Assembly: GCF_035573695.1 (NCBI RefSeq) | Contig: NZ_CP121694.1 | Coordinates: forward strand, 1,340,501-1,404,500 | Length of the DNA stretch: 64,000 bases | Origin: Metallumcola ferriviriculae | GTDB lineage: Bacteria > Bacillota > JADQBR01 | Direction of reading: 5' to 3' | Shown: positions 25,619 to 36,497 of the stretch, one piece after another | Layout of the letters: every line of letters starts with the position of its first letter | Numbering within the stretch: the stretch's first letter is position 1 | Notes under the pieces: model-generated | Databases searched by the model: none | What the model was told of the DNA's origin: nothing | The model's input: only the letters and a program-made list of their open reading frames with translations | Translations under genes and position numbers: made by a program

Positions 25619-26492
25619 TTTTCATTCTACGCCCTATTCTAGCAATGGTATCAGCAATTATCAATCGCTGTAGGCTTTTCTCTTGGCCAAGGTAATCATC
25701 TACATGAATAGATTGGCCAGTACTATCCGTAATTGGCCTAGTAACATATTTAGGTGCTTCGTTAAAAAAATGTTTAAGCATCTTTTTGGGAGTTTTTTCT
25801 CCTTGGTAATCTTTAAATATTTCCACTGAGAGCGCTTCAGCATGGTACCCCGACAATCTTCTATTATCAGGCAAATTAGATATAATAGATTTAACGAGCT
25901 TTACAACAGGCACAACCTTACCATTATTATGACTATTAACTTCAGACATCTTATTAGCAAAGGCTTTTGGCCTTATATATGACCATTGTTCCGCGTCTGG
26001 ACTAGGGATTTTAAATCCGTCTCTATATTTTGCAGCAGGCAAGATTTGAATTTCTGCATCATGAAATTTAATTGTAACTGCCAGTTTGCCAGAACTAATG
26101 TCGGTTCTGGGTAACCTTTCCTTCAAACGATCTACAAAATATTGCTTTACATCCGTAGGAGTTAAATCTTCCAATTCTGTATTATTTAAAAGAACTAAGG
26201 TATCTATATCACTAATCCCATCCACATAAGTATGTTTTTGAACAGAACCTCCATAAAGTAAGTCCACAGTATCTTCGATAAATTGCTCTAATGCGGACTT
26301 AATAGTACTCAAGTGAGCACTTATTGACTCTCTGTTTCGGTCATTATAATCTGCAAGCAAGTTACCAATTATTTCATTTACTCTAGTTTCAAATGCTTGG
26401 TCTTGAGCAGTTTCTTCTTCATCTCTAAGCCTTTTTATTAGCTCTTCTGGTGTTGAACTCCCTCCAAAAAAACCTCCACCTGATCCACCCAT
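25560..26492 (-). CDS. CD-NTase (SMODS-type cyclic oligonucleotide synthase) of type IV CBASS
   Basis: The 310-residue enzyme should sense phage infection and make a cyclic nucleotide signal. The nucleotidyltransferase signature is LLYGGSVQKHTYVDGISDID, with GS at 82-83 and the metal Asp pair at D95 and D97. The third acidic site is in IKFHDAEIQILPAA (D145/E147). A helical C-terminal domain follows. I chose ATG 26492, which overlaps the TGT stop as TGATG and has GGGGGA upstream. This gives a glycine-rich N-terminus (MGGSGGGFFGGSS) ahead of the fold. That tail is notable because type IV CBASS QueC-like proteins have recently been reported to attach a deazaguanine to a CD-NTase N-terminus (from memory). 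Confidence 0.88.
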   Translation of the reverse strand: MGGSGGGFFGGSSTPEELIKRLRDEEETAQDQAFETRVNEIIGNLLADYNDRNRESISAHLSTIKSALEQFIEDTVDLLYGGSVQKHTYVDGISDIDTLVLLNNTELEDLTPTDVKQYFVDRLKERLPRTDISSGKLAVTIKFHDAEIQILPAAKYRDGFKIPSPDAEQWSYIRPKAFANKMSEVNSHNNGKVVPVVKLVKSIISNLPDNRRLSGYHAEALSVEIFKDYQGEKTPKKMLKHFFNEAPKYVTRPITDSTGQSIHVDDYLGQEKSLQRLIIADTIARIGRRMKNADGAKSVEKWCDILGKQL

Positions 26493-27496
26493 CAATAACG
26501 TCCCCCTAACTGAGCACAAAGTGAGTCATATGCTTCTTTAAAGAACTCCGCATTATATTTAAATGAAGAGAAATCACCTTTAGCCTGAAAACTTTTCATC
26601 TGGAGCTGAAGATTTTGAAGATAATAAACATTATCTACGATTGCTTTTGCCTGGACCTTACTATCCCTAGCATTTATGCCAATCTGAGTTGCCCCAAAAT
26701 TTTGATTATATATTGCATTTCCATTTAAATATGAATATCTCAACCAAGTAAGCCCATCAAAAATTTCTGCCCCTGAAAGAAAATAAAGGCAAGAAGTTAT
26801 GGGGTCAAGGCTTCCAAAAACGTGTATAGGAGCAGATACGTCTATTTTATCAAGTTCATTTCTAATAAGAGCGATATTCTCCATACGCTTTAATAATGAG
26901 TTCCCTAATTCTTTTTCGGTTACCCCTATGACATGAAATTCGGATATGTCGTTTATGTGTTTAAGAACACTTTCCATCTGAATGTATTGTTGGCCGTTAG
27001 TCTCAGGCTTTAAAATAAAATCGTGAATCCTATTCGGGTAACGTGAGAAAAAAAGTTTAGCTGCTTCGATCTGTTCTTTTACAGGTCTTCTTAACGCCCC
27101 GTGATCAAAGTTTACAATGACTGTATCAATATGGTCGGGAAATCCTGACAAAACTTCATGAAGTTCTTCCTCCGTCCATTGCTTAACTTCGTGGTTGTGG
27201 CGCCATACTGCAGAAAAATCATGGCTGTCACCAGTTTCATAACCACCACTGTCAACAAACACTAGTTCAGTTGGATATTCCTCAACAATTAAGTAGCCGT
27301 GAAATAAGTCATATGCACTAACCAACATAGACTCAGTTAAGATCTCTGTAGCCGTCTTCAGCGGCTCATTTACTTCCGATAATCCGTCCCGATTAACCTT
27401 AAACCCCTTACTAGAAAACGAGGGAACCAGCAACGGCGTTGTTATAGTCATTCCAGAAGGCAATTTTAATTCTGTACTTCTAGCTAGATCCTGCAT
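26492..27496 (-). CDS. TGT-like (tRNA-guanine transglycosylase fold) protein of type IV CBASS
   Basis: A 334-residue barrel protein. ELVFVDSGGYETG holds D82, matching the base-binding Asp of TGT, and AEIFDGLTWLRYSYLNG holds D247, matching the nucleophile region (FDCVLPTR). The C-terminal zinc site of bacterial TGT (C-x-C-x2-C...H) is missing, so normal tRNA exchange is unlikely. This resembles other partner-bound TGT relatives such as DpdA. ATG 27496 has GGAGGT upstream and overlaps the QueC-like gene by 17 bases. In type IV CBASS this protein (Cap10) works with the QueC-like protein. Confidence 0.82.
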   Translation of the reverse strand: MQDLARSTELKLPSGMTITTPLLVPSFSSKGFKVNRDGLSEVNEPLKTATEILTESMLVSAYDLFHGYLIVEEYPTELVFVDSGGYETGDSHDFSAVWRHNHEVKQWTEEELHEVLSGFPDHIDTVIVNFDHGALRRPVKEQIEAAKLFFSRYPNRIHDFILKPETNGQQYIQMESVLKHINDISEFHVIGVTEKELGNSLLKRMENIALIRNELDKIDVSAPIHVFGSLDPITSCLYFLSGAEIFDGLTWLRYSYLNGNAIYNQNFGATQIGINARDSKVQAKAIVDNVYYLQNLQLQMKSFQAKGDFSSFKYNAEFFKEAYDSLCAQLGGRY

Positions 27497-28040
27497 AAAG
27501 AACCTCCAAATCCTTACATGATTTGCATCTACCACAAGGTTGTATTAAACCTAATTCACAACTATAGGTCAGGTTTAATGGAACCTGATGGGAAATACAA
27601 TAGTCCCAAATCTCTTTTTTATTCCAATTGAGAAAAGGAACACCAATTGAAATACGACCATTCGTATATAAGTCAAATGAGGCCTGCATAATTCTAATAA
27701 ATTCCTCAGAACAATCAGCATATCTAGTGCCTAAGTGAACTCCAATACTTATTATCCCTTTTCGTTCCTGAAACTCCATTAAGGCAGTATGCAACAATAG
27801 TGCATTCCTTCCAACTATAAAACCATCTGATGTTATATTAAACCCTGAGAAACTTACTTTTTTTGAAGGCACATCATAATGCTCACAGACCTTACTTACT
27901 GCCTTCTCCTCTTCTTTTATAGCGTGTTGGCCGAAATCCACAAAAAGAGCCAAAACGAAAAATTTTTGCTCTAAATAGAAATTCATTACTGCAGTCGAAT
28001 CTATTCCACCACTAGCTAGCACCATGACATGGTTTTTCAA
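27480..28040 (-). CDS. QueC-like (7-cyano-7-deazaguanine synthase family) protein of type IV CBASS
   Basis: A 186-residue protein, shorter than housekeeping QueC (about 220-230). The ATP PP-loop is LASGGIDSTAV (8-18). FIVGRNALLLHTA and GTRYADCSEEFIRIM follow family blocks. The zinc ligands are C161, C169, C172 and C175 (CELGLIQPCGRCKSC). No queDEF genes are near, so it is not part of ordinary queuosine synthesis. In type IV CBASS it is the nucleobase-activating enzyme (Cap9). First gene of the operon. The start is TTG 28040 with GTGGGG upstream; ATG 28025 is an alternative. Confidence 0.85.
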   Translation of the reverse strand: MKNHVMVLASGGIDSTAVMNFYLEQKFFVLALFVDFGQHAIKEEEKAVSKVCEHYDVPSKKVSFSGFNITSDGFIVGRNALLLHTALMEFQERKGIISIGVHLGTRYADCSEEFIRIMQASFDLYTNGRISIGVPFLNWNKKEIWDYCISHQVPLNLTYSCELGLIQPCGRCKSCKDLEVLYAGSS

Positions 28041-28169: not shown

Positions 28170-29796
28170 ACAAAAGTTATGCACTTGATGGAAATAACTA
28201 GAAAATCATAATCCCAAAAAAACTTTTAAAAAACCGCAATAATCGATAAAAAAGGCTTGACTTTTTCAAAAAGGCCCCATAATCGTTATGGATGGTATTT
28301 TTTACCATTACTCTGGACGATATGGGTGATACTAATGAAGAAACTGTGTAAACCGACTTTCGAGAAAAAGGATCACGGTCAAGGTGCCGGAATTCCGGTA
28401 CTAAAAACAATCTGGGATTTGTTTGATTTGTCTTTGCTATTTTCTCAATCCGGAATACGTAAACACTCTGGAGCACCAGCTTGGATTTTGGCCTTTGCTT
28501 ACATCTGTGGCTTGGTCAATCATGCAAGTTCTGCAAATCAAAATGCTATGTATTCAAGTGAAGCACCATTTTTACGACAACTACTTTCTGGAAAGATAAT
28601 CTCCCAAAGTGCCTTTAGCCGGTTTCTTTCTAAGCCTTTTCAGCGGCTCCGGTTCTCTCTAGGCAGGCTTTCGAGGTTACAGGAAAACACGGATAGCCGG
28701 CTGACCGACGGGGATATCATTGCCTTAGATGATACCAAAGTTGAGCATCCTTACGGTAAAAAAATTCCTTTTCTCTGTTGGCTCTTTGACAGTTCGGATA
28801 AGCGTCATGTCTGGTGCATTAATCTTGTATCAACACTGGCGGTCTTAAAAAATGGCCTTGAATATCCTATGTTATGGCGTTTCTGGGTTAAAACCGACCA
28901 GGAGAATGAAAAACAAACCAAGCTCGATCTTGCTAAACAGATGCTTAAAGAGGTGCGTCAACTAAACAATGCCAGGCTATGGGTTGCCATGGATCGCTAA
29001 CTTTTGTGCAAGAAGTTCCTGAACTGGCTTATGGAAAACAATTTTGACTGGGTTACCAAAGCCAAACGTAACACGGTATTATTTAGGAAAATCTATGATC
29101 CTGTGCTAGGAAAGAACCATTACGTCAAACTTAATGCTAAACAATTACTGCGAGAAGTTTATTCCCGGATTCGGATCCTTGGCAAAGGCTCCGTCTTAAG
29201 TATTCCGAACATTTACATCAAAGTACCTTATGAGACCTTGACCAAAAAGGGAAAACCTATTACTAGGCAACGTTTCTTACCCATAGCTGCCATTGCAGCC
29301 ACTTATGAGGAACAAGTAGCTGAGGGCAGTGTGATTCTTCCGGAGGAAGAATGCCCTGCAACCTTCAAGGGTGTGTATCTTTTGATAAGCAACCGAGTAG
29401 ACGCACCTGAAGAAGCAGCCAGAACCTATACAAAAAGGTGGAAAATTGAAGTTTTTTATCGCACAGTCAAACAGAATCTTGGATTAACTTCGTGTTACGC
29501 TCAGTCAGAACCAGCCCATTTCGCACATGTGGAGCTCTTGTTCACAGCGCAAACCCTTCTTTGTTACGCCACTTGGTGTAATAAAGAAGGCGCCGAACAA
29601 GCCCCATCCCTCTGCGAAGTGGTCAGGTACTTTTTCAACGCCGGTTGTCGGATCCGCTGTATCAAGCAGCTGATCCAAGTCTATTTTGACACAGCAACCG
29701 AGCGTTTTGCAAGTCTTATTGATAGATTTTGGCCAAAAGATTTGGAACTTAGGTTATGGAATTGGGATTATTATCCTGGAACTGCATAACTACTGT
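28170..29796 (+). mobile_element. Right IS copy of the composite transposon (IS4 superfamily)
   Basis: Same length (1,627 bp), ends and orientation as copy 1. It differs by C at 28458. It is followed directly by GGGTT, the target duplication, and the rest of the hydrolase gene. Confidence 0.88.
28335..29789 (+). pseudogene. IS4-superfamily transposase with an internal TAA stop (copy 2)
   Basis: As copy 1, with TAA at 28998-29000 between VAMDR and LLCKKFLNWL. The YTKRWKIEVFYRTVK signature is intact. Arg replaces Cys in SGIRKHSGAP near the N-terminus. Both copies are equally interrupted, so mobility now would need readthrough or an intact enzyme supplied from elsewhere in the genome. Confidence 0.8.
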
Positions 29797-30199
29797 GGGT
29801 TATTATAATGCATTTCCATACTTACCTGAAAACGTACAGCAAAATTTAATTCCACTTACCGACGTGCTTAATCAGACATTGGCTCAGGCAATAGAATTGT
29901 CTCAGACCGATGCCGTTTTTGTGCCAACATTTGATGCTATGGCTGCCATCGGCGAGGAATATGAATTATTTTTTCCGGAAGCCAATATACATCCAAGTGA
30001 GGCGGGTTACCAGGCAATAGCCGGAGAATTTTTGAAAGTACTTAATCCTTTGGAGTTAATGGCTGTAAGCGTCATTAAGGACCTTGACGCATATGCAGTA
30101 AAAGATTACGGTAAGGTTCAGGGAACTATGATGTCAATAATAGGCGAAAAGGCAACAGGAGCAGAAGTTAACCAAATTATTAAACCATATTTTAAGTAA
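29797..30199 (+). pseudogene. 3' half of the split GDSL/SGNH hydrolase gene
   Basis: Continues the gene broken at 22281. After the target duplication it reads YYNAFPYLPENVQQNL, FVPTFDAMAAIGEEYE and the histidine block NIHPSEAGYQAIAGEF. The usual D-x2-H Asp is an Asn here. The tail of about 60 residues (YGKVQGTMMSIIGEKATG) follows the SGNH domain. No start is available, so this half is not expected to make protein. Confidence 0.8.
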
Positions 30200-30915: not shown

Positions 30916-30949
30916 AGCTGCTAATCTAAATGAGATTAGCAGCTTTTGT
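30916..30949. terminator. Bidirectional terminator between DUF169 and OsmC genes
   Basis: A 12-bp perfect stem (AGCTGCTAATCT with its complement, 5-base loop) is followed by TTTTG on the plus strand. It lies just beyond the stop of the convergent OsmC gene. Confidence 0.75.
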
Positions 30950-30950
30950 A

Positions 30951-31415
30951 CTACACTTCTTTTATCTCCCAAGTATGCTTAAATTCAATGCAACCTTTCA
31001 AGGTTTGGGCTACAGGGCATCCGGTTTCAAACACAGCTAAAGCTTTCTCTGCAACTTCCTTTGTTCCCTGAGGTATTTCTAAATGGTACCGGCAATGAAT
31101 GCGGGTAATTTTTAGCACGCCGTCTACAGCCTCTATTACTCCTTCTGCTTCGGTCCACAACTTATCCGGGAAAGTAGGAATTTTGCGCGCTGCCAGCGCG
31201 CCGGATAAAGTGCCGGTTAGTCAGCCAGCGGCAGCGGAGATAATATGATCCAGGGTGGAAGGATACTCTTTTTTAGGTTCTGCCTTGTAAAAATCTTTCA
31301 CGCCACCATGAATGCCGTAATAGAACGGGTCTTTAAAGTCACCAATATAAGCTCGTCTATTTGGTCGTTCGTCCTGATAAATACTGATCTTGGCTATATG
31401 TATCGGTTCCGACAT
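30951..31415 (-). CDS. OsmC/Ohr-family peroxidase-like protein with in-frame UGA, probable selenocysteine
   Basis: One continuous OsmC-family protein of 154 residues is read if UGA at 31223-31221 (codon 65) is decoded. Before it lies TLDHIISAAAG, after it LTGTLSGALAARKIP. In OsmC proteins the peroxidatic Cys sits exactly there (AAGC-L-T). The resolving Cys is kept in FETGCPVAQTLKG. A GC-rich hairpin starts 19 bases after the UGA. Known selenoprotein families include OsmC-like proteins. It should reduce organic hydroperoxides. ATG 31415 follows AAGGAGG by 7-8 bases. The alternative is a simple nonsense mutation of a Cys codon; the conserved position and hairpin argue against that. Confidence 0.72.
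31185..31201 (-). promoter_or_regulatory. SECIS-like hairpin downstream of the OsmC UGA
   Basis: On the minus strand GCGCGCT-GGC-AGCGCGC forms a perfect 7-bp stem with a GGC loop. The loop begins 26 bases after the UGA, inside the window normal for bacterial SECIS elements, and its first base is G as the known consensus requires. Confidence 0.6.
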
Positions 31416-31596
31416 CAATACGCCTCCTTCACTAACTTGTTTTCATAGTATTTCTCAAAAACTGATTTTATCCCTGTTTTTACACGGGAATTTTTGATAA
31501 CGAATCAAAGTGGGTAAAGAAGGATGTTAACGCTAATATAAAGAAAAGTTATATTATACTATTAAAAGAATGAAGGGGTAAGCAACTTACATCTAA

Positions 31597-34055: not shown

Positions 34056-36497
34056 ATGACTAATCATGGAGATTTAGACTCTAAGTTAAAAACGGCCTTA
34101 GCTCAGTGTGAAAGACTTCAGCACGAGAACGGTCATTTGAAAAAGTTGCTGGGTGATAAAAGAGAAGAAGCGGGTAGGGCGGTATCCGGCTCAAAAGTTA
34201 CTAAACAGTCAAGTAATGCGGATAAGAACAGGCTGTTTCGCAGCTATTTTCGCGGCCGTGATGATGTTTTCTCACTTCGTTGGGAAAATGATAACGGTAA
34301 GTCTGGCTATGCACCTGTCTGTATAAACGAGTGGAAACCTATTTGCGCAAAACCCGGTGGCAAATGTTCTTCATGTTTATTTCGTAAATTTAAACCATTG
34401 AGCGATAAAGAAATACAAAAGCATTTAGCGGGGAAACAGACCATCGGAATCTACCCTCTTCTACCGAATGATACATGCTGGTTTTTAGTAGCAGATTTTG
34501 ATAAAGCTACTTGGCAGGAAGATGCCGGTGCATTTTTAGAAACTTGTGATCAGATGGCAATACCTACAGGATTGGAGCGATCCCGTTCGGGCACTGGCGC
34601 TCATGTTTGGATTTTTTTTGAGAATCCGGTTAAGGCGTCTTTGGCCAGAAAGTTAGGCTCTATCGTTGTGGACCACACTATGGAAAAAAGATATGAAGTT
34701 GGTTTAGATTCTTATGACCGTCTGTTTCCTAGTCAGGATACCATGCCTGGCGGTGGATTGGGTAATTTAATTGCTTTACCATTCCAGTTTAAATCTGCTC
34801 TAAAAGGAAACAGCTTATTTATTGACCGGAACTTTGAGGTTTACCCGGATCAGTGGAGTTATATTTCATCAATTAGAAAGATGAAACCGCAAGAAGTTGA
34901 AGCTGGGGTGGCCGATGCTCAAAGGAAGGGAATTGTCGGGCCGGGTAATGATTCTGATAAGTTAGACAATGATGATGTCGACCATATTTTATTACGGGAA
35001 CAACCTCAACGAAAGAGATGTTCGAAACCTCAGTCGGAACAATTGCCGGAAAGGGTTAAAATTATTTCTGGTAATTTACTTTATGTGAAGAAAAGCGGCT
35101 TGCCCTCCTCGATTTTAAACAAGTTAAATTGGTTAGCAGCTTTTCATAACCCAGAGTTTTATAAAGCTCAAAAGATGAGGCTTTCTACATTTGGAAAACC
35201 GAGAATTATTTCCTGTAGTGACGGGTTTCCCAATTATATTGGCTTACCCCGCGGCTGCTTAGATGAGACTTTGAACCTTTTCAAAGTCCACAACATTATC
35301 ACTGAATTATTTGACCGCCGATTTCAAGGTGAGTGTATTAAGGTAGAGTTCAAAGGGGAATTAAGGCCGCTCCAGGAGCAGGCGGCGAAAACGCTTTTAT
35401 CCCATGATAACGGTGTGTTATGCGCGGCAACGGGATTTGGTAAAACAGTCGTAGGCTCTTACATGATAGCAAATAGGAAGATAAACACCCTTGTTTTGGT
35501 GCATCGGCGGCAATTAATGGAGCAATGGCGTGAACAACTTGCTGCATTTTTAGATGTACCGGTTGAGTCAATTGGAAAAATCGGCGGGGGTACTACCAAA
35601 CCTACGGGATTTATAGATATTGGTATGTTTCAAAGCCTCAATAAAAAAGGCAAAATCAATAGTTTGGTATCCAATTACGGGCAGGTTATTGTGGACGAAT
35701 GCCACCATATTCCTGCTTTCAGTTTTGAACAGGTGATGAAGAAAGTAAAAGCTAAATACGTGATGGGATTGACTGCGACTCCTATACGTAAAGACGGACA
35801 TCACCCTATTATTTTTATGCAGTGCGGTCCGGTCCGGTTTCGGGTGAAGGATAAGGATTTACTGTTAGACAGGCCTTTTGAGCACATTGTCGTTCCCCGG
35901 CTGACAAATTTTAAGATACCTGGATATATCCACGACCCCAAGTTTCATGATATCGCTCAACAAATTATCATTGATAATGATAGAAATGATATGATCATTA
36001 ACGACCTCATACACGAGGTGGAGGCAGGACATTCACCGTTACTCTTGACTGAGCGTGTGGCACATTTGGAGCATTTTGTAGCAAAATTAAAGGGGTTTGT
36101 AAAGAACATCATTGTGCTGCATGGAAGAATGAGCACTAAAGAAAAACAAGAGGCTGAAAAGCAGCTGAAAACCATAAGAGATGATGAGGAGCGTGTGATA
36201 ATTGCCACTGGACGATATATTGGTGAAGGGTTTGATGATGCACGGTTAGATACTTTGTTTTTAACGATGCCTATTCGGTGGAAAGGAACTATTCAACAAT
36301 ATGCTGGCCGTGTGCACCGGAAGCACTATAATAAAAAAGTGGTAAAAATCTACGATTATATTGATACTTCTGTTCCGTTACTGGACAAGATGTATAAAAG
36401 CAGGCTTAAGGGCTACAAATATCTGGGATATTCAATCCAGTCGCAGACGATTGAGGGGAATGGGCAATTGTCTCTTGACGACTATCTTGGACCGTAA
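34056..36497 (+). CDS. TOTE-type archaeo-eukaryotic primase fused to a superfamily 2 helicase
   Basis: An 813-residue protein. A coiled N-terminus (1-50) is followed by a Cys cluster (CAKPGGKCSSCLF). The primase-like domain carries WFLVADFDK (two metal Asp) and SGTGAHVWIFFE, the usual primase His motif, then LPFQFKSALKG. The helicase has Walker A AATGFGKTVVGSYM, DExH box VDECHH, GLTATPIRKDG and QYAGRVHRKH. This fusion is the core of TOTE conflict systems, thought to act against or within mobile elements. Here it stands alone without the usual nuclease partners. All active-site motifs look intact. Confidence 0.78.
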   Translation: MTNHGDLDSKLKTALAQCERLQHENGHLKKLLGDKREEAGRAVSGSKVTKQSSNADKNRLFRSYFRGRDDVFSLRWENDNGKSGYAPVCINEWKPICAKPGGKCSSCLFRKFKPLSDKEIQKHLAGKQTIGIYPLLPNDTCWFLVADFDKATWQEDAGAFLETCDQMAIPTGLERSRSGTGAHVWIFFENPVKASLARKLGSIVVDHTMEKRYEVGLDSYDRLFPSQDTMPGGGLGNLIALPFQFKSALKGNSLFIDRNFEVYPDQWSYISSIRKMKPQEVEAGVADAQRKGIVGPGNDSDKLDNDDVDHILLREQPQRKRCSKPQSEQLPERVKIISGNLLYVKKSGLPSSILNKLNWLAAFHNPEFYKAQKMRLSTFGKPRIISCSDGFPNYIGLPRGCLDETLNLFKVHNIITELFDRRFQGECIKVEFKGELRPLQEQAAKTLLSHDNGVLCAATGFGKTVVGSYMIANRKINTLVLVHRRQLMEQWREQLAAFLDVPVESIGKIGGGTTKPTGFIDIGMFQSLNKKGKINSLVSNYGQVIVDECHHIPAFSFEQVMKKVKAKYVMGLTATPIRKDGHHPIIFMQCGPVRFRVKDKDLLLDRPFEHIVVPRLTNFKIPGYIHDPKFHDIAQQIIIDNDRNDMIINDLIHEVEAGHSPLLLTERVAHLEHFVAKLKGFVKNIIVLHGRMSTKEKQEAEKQLKTIRDDEERVIIATGRYIGEGFDDARLDTLFLTMPIRWKGTIQQYAGRVHRKHYNKKVVKIYDYIDTSVPLLDKMYKSRLKGYKYLGYSIQSQTIEGNGQLSLDDYLGP

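What the first reader, a model, noticed from the sequence alone, without database searches (positions are those of the whole stretch)
30951..31415. OsmC peroxidase with UGA at the peroxidatic Cys and a SECIS-like hairpin
Codon 65 UGA stands exactly where OsmC proteins have the catalytic Cys, the frame continues for 89 residues with the second Cys conserved, and a perfect 7-bp hairpin with G-first loop lies 26 bases after the UGA. A standard gene caller would split it in two.
Basis: partly seen in the sequence, partly recalled or inferred. Interest (0 to 1): 0.8.

Follow-up and report, generated by a model that had tools for sequence, protein, structure and literature searches.

The report
Selenocysteine-containing OsmC-family redox protein
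This gene encodes a small antioxidant-type protein of the OsmC family whose active-site cysteine is replaced by selenocysteine, read from an internal UGA 'stop' codon; the whole branch of relatives found here does the same, and OsmC-like selenoproteins were already reported from marine DNA.

Summary
On the minus strand, 31415-30951 is one 154-residue OsmC-family gene with a strong Shine-Dalgarno site and an in-frame UGA as codon 65, where OsmC/Ohr proteins carry the peroxidatic Cys. The second Cys (C133, GCPV) is conserved. The genome has selA, selB, selD and tRNA-Sec(UCA), and its selD itself needs UGA read as Sec. A search whose seeds did not include codon 65 found 53 relatives in Bacillales, Halanaerobiales and SAR324, and every one has TGA there. 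No Cys version of this subfamily turned up in about 850 genomes searched. The hairpin after the UGA is under selection as nucleic acid: its conserved Ala, Leu and Ala codons are GCG, CTG and GCG in 57 of 57 sequences (codon entropy 0.23 bits, against 1.86 elsewhere in the gene). The loop opens with G, 26 nt after the UGA, as in the published bacterial SECIS model. The structure model is high-confidence, with OsmC/Ohr proteins as its nearest solved structures. OsmC-like selenoproteins have been known since the 2005 Sargasso Sea survey (listed motif UxxT). This clade (motif U-L-[TV]-G-T) appears strictly Sec-dependent and has no NCBIfam model of its own. Peroxidase function is inferred, not shown.

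The parts
30951..31415 (-). Sec-OsmC gene, 154 residues with UGA read as Sec (U65), stop TAG
   Evidence: Pfam OsmC PF02566 E 2.8e-14
31221..31223 (-). In-frame UGA, codon 65, predicted selenocysteine at the peroxidatic position
   Evidence: TGA in 57 of 57 aligned sequences
31185..31201 (-). bSECIS hairpin, 7-bp stem, loop GGC (31194-31192), loop begins 26 nt after the UGA
31017..31019 (-). Cys133 codon of GCPVAQ, aligned with the second Cys of OsmC proteins (proposed resolving residue)
   Evidence: invariant in alignment A1; aligned with GCPVSR of 1ukk
31423..31429 (-). Shine-Dalgarno AAGGAGG, 7 nt before the ATG
   Evidence: sequence
30916..30944 (.). 12-bp inverted repeat just after the gene, likely terminator; the + strand copy has the better T tail

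Best explanation
A functional selenoprotein gene. SelB with Sec-tRNA(Sec) binds the hairpin just downstream of codon 65 and inserts selenocysteine at the UGA, giving a full-length OsmC-family protein. By analogy with OsmC/Ohr, Sec65 (in place of the peroxidatic Cys) reduces a hydroperoxide, becomes a selenenic acid, is resolved by Cys133 as a selenenyl-sulfide, and is recycled by a cellular dithiol. Shown by computation: gene, UGA position, machinery, hairpin conservation, fold. Inferred: actual Sec insertion, peroxidase chemistry, substrate and reductant. The confidence below is for the selenoprotein reading; the peroxidase role alone I put at about 0.65-0.7.
For: selA (615 bits), selB (388 bits), selD (390 bits) and tRNA-Sec (75 bits, anticodon tca) in the same single-contig chromosome. 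selD itself reads ...CAAGUAAK with one TGA, so the genome must decode UGA as Sec to have SelD. 53 relatives (49-72% identity) found with seeds that did not touch codon 65, all TGA. 47 full-length matches in a 397-genome Bacillales sample, each with exactly one TGA and none Cys; 6 of 6 full-length matches in SAR324. Hairpin codons frozen, entropy 0.23 vs 1.86 bits. All 16 tested genome handles (15 distinct genomes) have selB. Model pLDDT 94, nearest folds OsmC/Ohr. Sec and Cys OsmC separate on one branch, 92/96 support.
Against: No protein or 75Se data. Hairpin conservation in Bacillota is nearly invariant, so covariation is weak. The Glu ten residues before the Cys in E. coli OsmC (my recollection of that sequence) is Leu55 here; an invariant Asp lies at -9, so peroxidase chemistry may differ. 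Own-phylum distribution is patchy (5 of 398 genomes).
Confidence: 0.95

Rival explanations
1. A pseudogene or sequencing error: an ordinary Cys OsmC with a TGC/TGT changed to TGA.
For: A single-base change would make it; broken remnants of this family do exist elsewhere (G672 stops two codons after the UGA, G755 keeps only the C-terminal half, G394 is frameshifted).
Against: 57 of 57 aligned sequences, from many separate assemblies, have TGA at this codon and conserve the protein after it; the downstream half keeps invariant residues.
Confidence: 0.01
2. UGA is read as Trp or another standard residue, or by plain readthrough, not as Sec.
For: The frame is open beyond the UGA.
Against: UGA ends 7 of 48 ORFs of at least 200 aa in the window, so it is a normal stop codon; full Sec machinery; UGA sits at the redox Cys position; hairpin selected at synonymous sites.
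Confidence: 0.02
3. It is a selenoprotein, but not a hydroperoxidase: Sec65 serves another redox or sulfur/selenium-transfer reaction, as may be true of YhfA-type OsmC proteins. (This competes only with the peroxidase step of the best explanation.)
For: Residues before the Sec (PSTLDHIISAAAGU) resemble the YhfA-like protein of this genome (PSPMEVVLVALGGC) more than the NPE motif of E. coli OsmC; no conserved neighbour genes indicate a substrate.
Against: The GCPV second Cys is that of true OsmC, and the best NCBIfam match is TIGR03562 OsmC peroxiredoxin, though below its cut-off.
Confidence: 0.3

Closest known systems
OsmC-like selenoprotein of the Sargasso Sea and GOS surveys (COG1765/PF02566; PMC1088965, PMC2398784, reviews PMC9312934 and PMC13188914)
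   Same: OsmC domain with Sec in place of the redox Cys, downstream bSECIS
   Different: Listed motif is UxxT; here Sec is followed by L-[TV]-G-T (UxxG, T at +4). Published members were few (3 and 5) with Cys homologues counted; here only Sec forms were found.
OsmC peroxiredoxin (1ukk, 1qwi/1nye; TIGR03562)
   Same: Fold, redox residue position, second Cys GCPV
   Different: Sec instead of Cys; about 20-24% identity; scores 34.8 bits against a cut-off of 85.8
Ohr organic hydroperoxide resistance proteins (2bjo, 6ebd)
   Same: Fold and two-Cys layout
   Different: Sec; 11-15% identity in structural alignment

Membership tests
Bacterial selenoprotein | In-frame UGA aligned with Cys of homologues | tested here: met
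   U65 aligned with the Cys of 1ukk; TGA in 57 of 57 close relatives
Bacterial selenoprotein | selA, selB, selC, selD in the genome | tested here: met
Bacterial selenoprotein | bSECIS: loop 3-9 nt, upper stem 4-16 bp, G in the first two loop positions, loop 16-37 nt after the UGA (PMC13188914) | tested here: met
   loop GGC, 7 bp, 26 nt
Bacterial selenoprotein | Selenium present in the protein | not testable with these tools
   needs 75Se labelling or mass spectrometry
OsmC/Ohr superfamily (PF02566) | Profile match above the curated cut-off | tested here: met
   53.8 bits, cut-off 27.5
OsmC/Ohr superfamily (PF02566) | OsmC fold and two redox positions | tested here: met
OsmC peroxiredoxin proper (TIGR03562) | Score above the curated cut-off | tested here: not met
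   34.8 vs 85.8 bits
OsmC/Ohr hydroperoxidase | Peroxidase activity | not testable with these tools
   enzyme assay needed
Published OsmC-like selenoprotein, UxxT | UxxT motif | tested here: not met
   U-L-T-G-T here and U-L-[TVSA]-G-T in relatives

The most novel reading that the evidence does not exclude
A distinct OsmC clade that is obligately Sec-dependent (no Cys forms), carries an almost frozen bSECIS, and has spread patchily among Bacillales, Halanaerobiales, other Bacillota and SAR324; it is absent from current family models, so genes are likely to be split in two by standard annotation.
Probability: 0.6. Interest if true: 0.5.

Novelty: new member of a known kind. Interest (0 to 1): 0.42.

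Why it matters
Most selenoprotein families have Cys counterparts; a clade in which no Cys form was found suggests that selenium is essential to its reaction. It also expands the selenoproteome of cultured, salt- and alkali-tolerant Bacillus relatives, in which OsmC-type selenoproteins can be tested directly, and it marks a gene that a standard ORF caller splits.

Tried and rejected
Single-sequence folding as proof of the SECIS: z -0.92, rejected as proof; codon comparison used instead. Rfam gathering scan of the window: no hits, so it did not help. Gene neighbourhood: no conserved neighbour (at most 6 of 53 loci share one, none with the window). Plasmid records: no match. Papers on Bacillaceae or OsmC-family selenoproteins: searches gave nothing beyond the known catalogues. 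Two other SAR324 OsmC genes with TGA belong to other subfamilies (L114, L115) and were not used. Co-occurrence with selA in the own phylum is only weak support, since 257 of 398 genomes have selA.

Full report
Observation. The reading is correct in every detail that matters. Minus strand 31415-30951 encodes 154 residues with one TGA, codon 65, at 31223-31221. Read normally the gene falls into pieces of 65 and 69 aa. It has a strong Shine-Dalgarno site (AAGGAGG) and a 12-bp inverted repeat after the stop. The hairpin is a perfect 7-bp stem with loop GGC; the loop starts 26 nt after the UGA.

Chance. A stem this good, in the permitted distance range and with G at loop position 1-2, follows 17 of 2055 TGA triplets of the window and arises in 0.22% of synonymous recodings. 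The fold of 63 nt is not exceptional. From this sequence alone the case is good but not closed.

Machinery. The single-contig genome of 3.72 Mb has selA and selB side by side (C1:335985-339255), tRNA-Sec with anticodon tca (C1:344391-344483) and selD (C1:414315-415238), all above curated cut-offs. SelD itself has one in-frame TGA in the motif CAAGUAAK, so UGA must already be decoded as Sec in this organism. UGA is also a normal stop here: 7 of 48 ORFs of at least 200 aa in the window end with it.

Relatives. A scan of 84,980 species genomes used peptide seeds that do not include residue 65 and returned 53 loci of 49-72% identity, mostly Bacillales, with a Halanaerobiales (Candidatus Frackibacter; lineage) and a SAR324 member; all have TGA at codon 65. 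With further phylum members the count is 57 of 57 including the window; one of these, L080, appears to be the same gene as L075. A sample of 397 genomes from the order of a Bacillus relative gave 47 full-length matches of at least 210 bits, each with exactly one TGA, then fragments of this family (149-107 bits, and a truncated remnant at 54), then ordinary OsmC proteins at about 50 bits or less without stops (position of the TGA was not checked for each of the 47). In the own phylum 5 of 398 genomes have it, all with TGA, and the two same-family genomes examined do not: a patchy pattern that suggests horizontal transfer (inference). SAR324 gave six full-length members, all TGA. Sixteen of 16 carrier handles (15 distinct genomes, G040 and G400 being the same) have selB. 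In a small tree the Sec proteins lie on one side of one branch (92/96).

Hairpin selection. At conserved residues with four or more codons, codon entropy averages 1.86 bits at 43 positions outside the hairpin (minimum 0.86) and 0.23 bits at the five hairpin positions. A73, L74 and A76 are GCG, CTG and GCG in 57 of 57; G72 is GGC/GGT and R77 is CGT/CGC only. The wobble changes at G72 and R77 keep pairing through G-U. Two SAR324 members (L109, L112) have different codons (GGT GCT TTA/TTG) yet still fold a stable hairpin in the same place, in a slightly shifted register; the L112 loop (UGA) has G at position 2, the L109 loop (UAA) lacks it. This suggests that the RNA hairpin, not only the protein, is kept.

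Protein. Pfam OsmC E 2.8e-14; PDB sequence match 1ukk, with U65 on its redox Cys and C133 on GCPV; AlphaFold2 pLDDT 94.1; the leading structural matches are OsmC/Ohr family proteins, best E 1.1e-9. Invariant residues include D56, G64, U65, L66, G68, T69, C133, P134 and Q137. The genome has two further, Cys-type OsmC-like proteins.

Mechanism. Proposed: SelB-dependent Sec insertion at codon 65, then Sec-based hydroperoxide reduction with C133 as resolving residue. The first step is strongly supported by comparison. The chemistry is inferred from the family, and the sequence just before the Sec resembles YhfA-type proteins, whose substrates are uncertain (from general knowledge), so I give the peroxidase role about 0.65-0.7.

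Known or new. OsmC-like selenoproteins were reported in the Sargasso Sea (3 sequences, UxxT, PMC1088965) and GOS data (5, PMC2398784) and stand in the 2022 and 2026 catalogues (PMC9312934, PMC13188914). The present clade has U-L-[TV]-G-T, not UxxT, and matches no NCBIfam selenoprotein model. I could not obtain the published sequences, so I file it as a new member of a known kind.

Noticed in passing
28257-29789 (+): Transposase (DDE_Tnp_1) with an in-frame TAA at 28998-29000; it appears to have cut into a GDSL/SGNH hydrolase whose C-terminal part remains at 29756-30199.
   Followed up: partly
34056-36497 (+): Large protein with an AEP-TOTE primase domain plus helicase: a TOTE conflict-system component.
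   Followed up: no
26492-28040 (-): QueC-like protein followed by an overlapping 347-aa protein without any Pfam match, possibly a 7-deazaguanine-related pair.
   Followed up: no
L115 225-881 (-) and L114 275-679 (-): Two other kinds of OsmC with TGA at the redox Cys in SAR324: a longer protein with an OsmC C-terminus (LGSUTSITL) and a short OsmC-like protein (ALGLUIIRTL).
   Followed up: partly
L118, L117, L080: Decayed copies of the Sec-OsmC gene in Bacillales: stop two codons after the UGA, C-terminal half only, and a frameshift.
   Followed up: partly
G040 contigs C2 and C4 (L082, L078); G428: Genomes with two Sec-OsmC copies.
   Followed up: no
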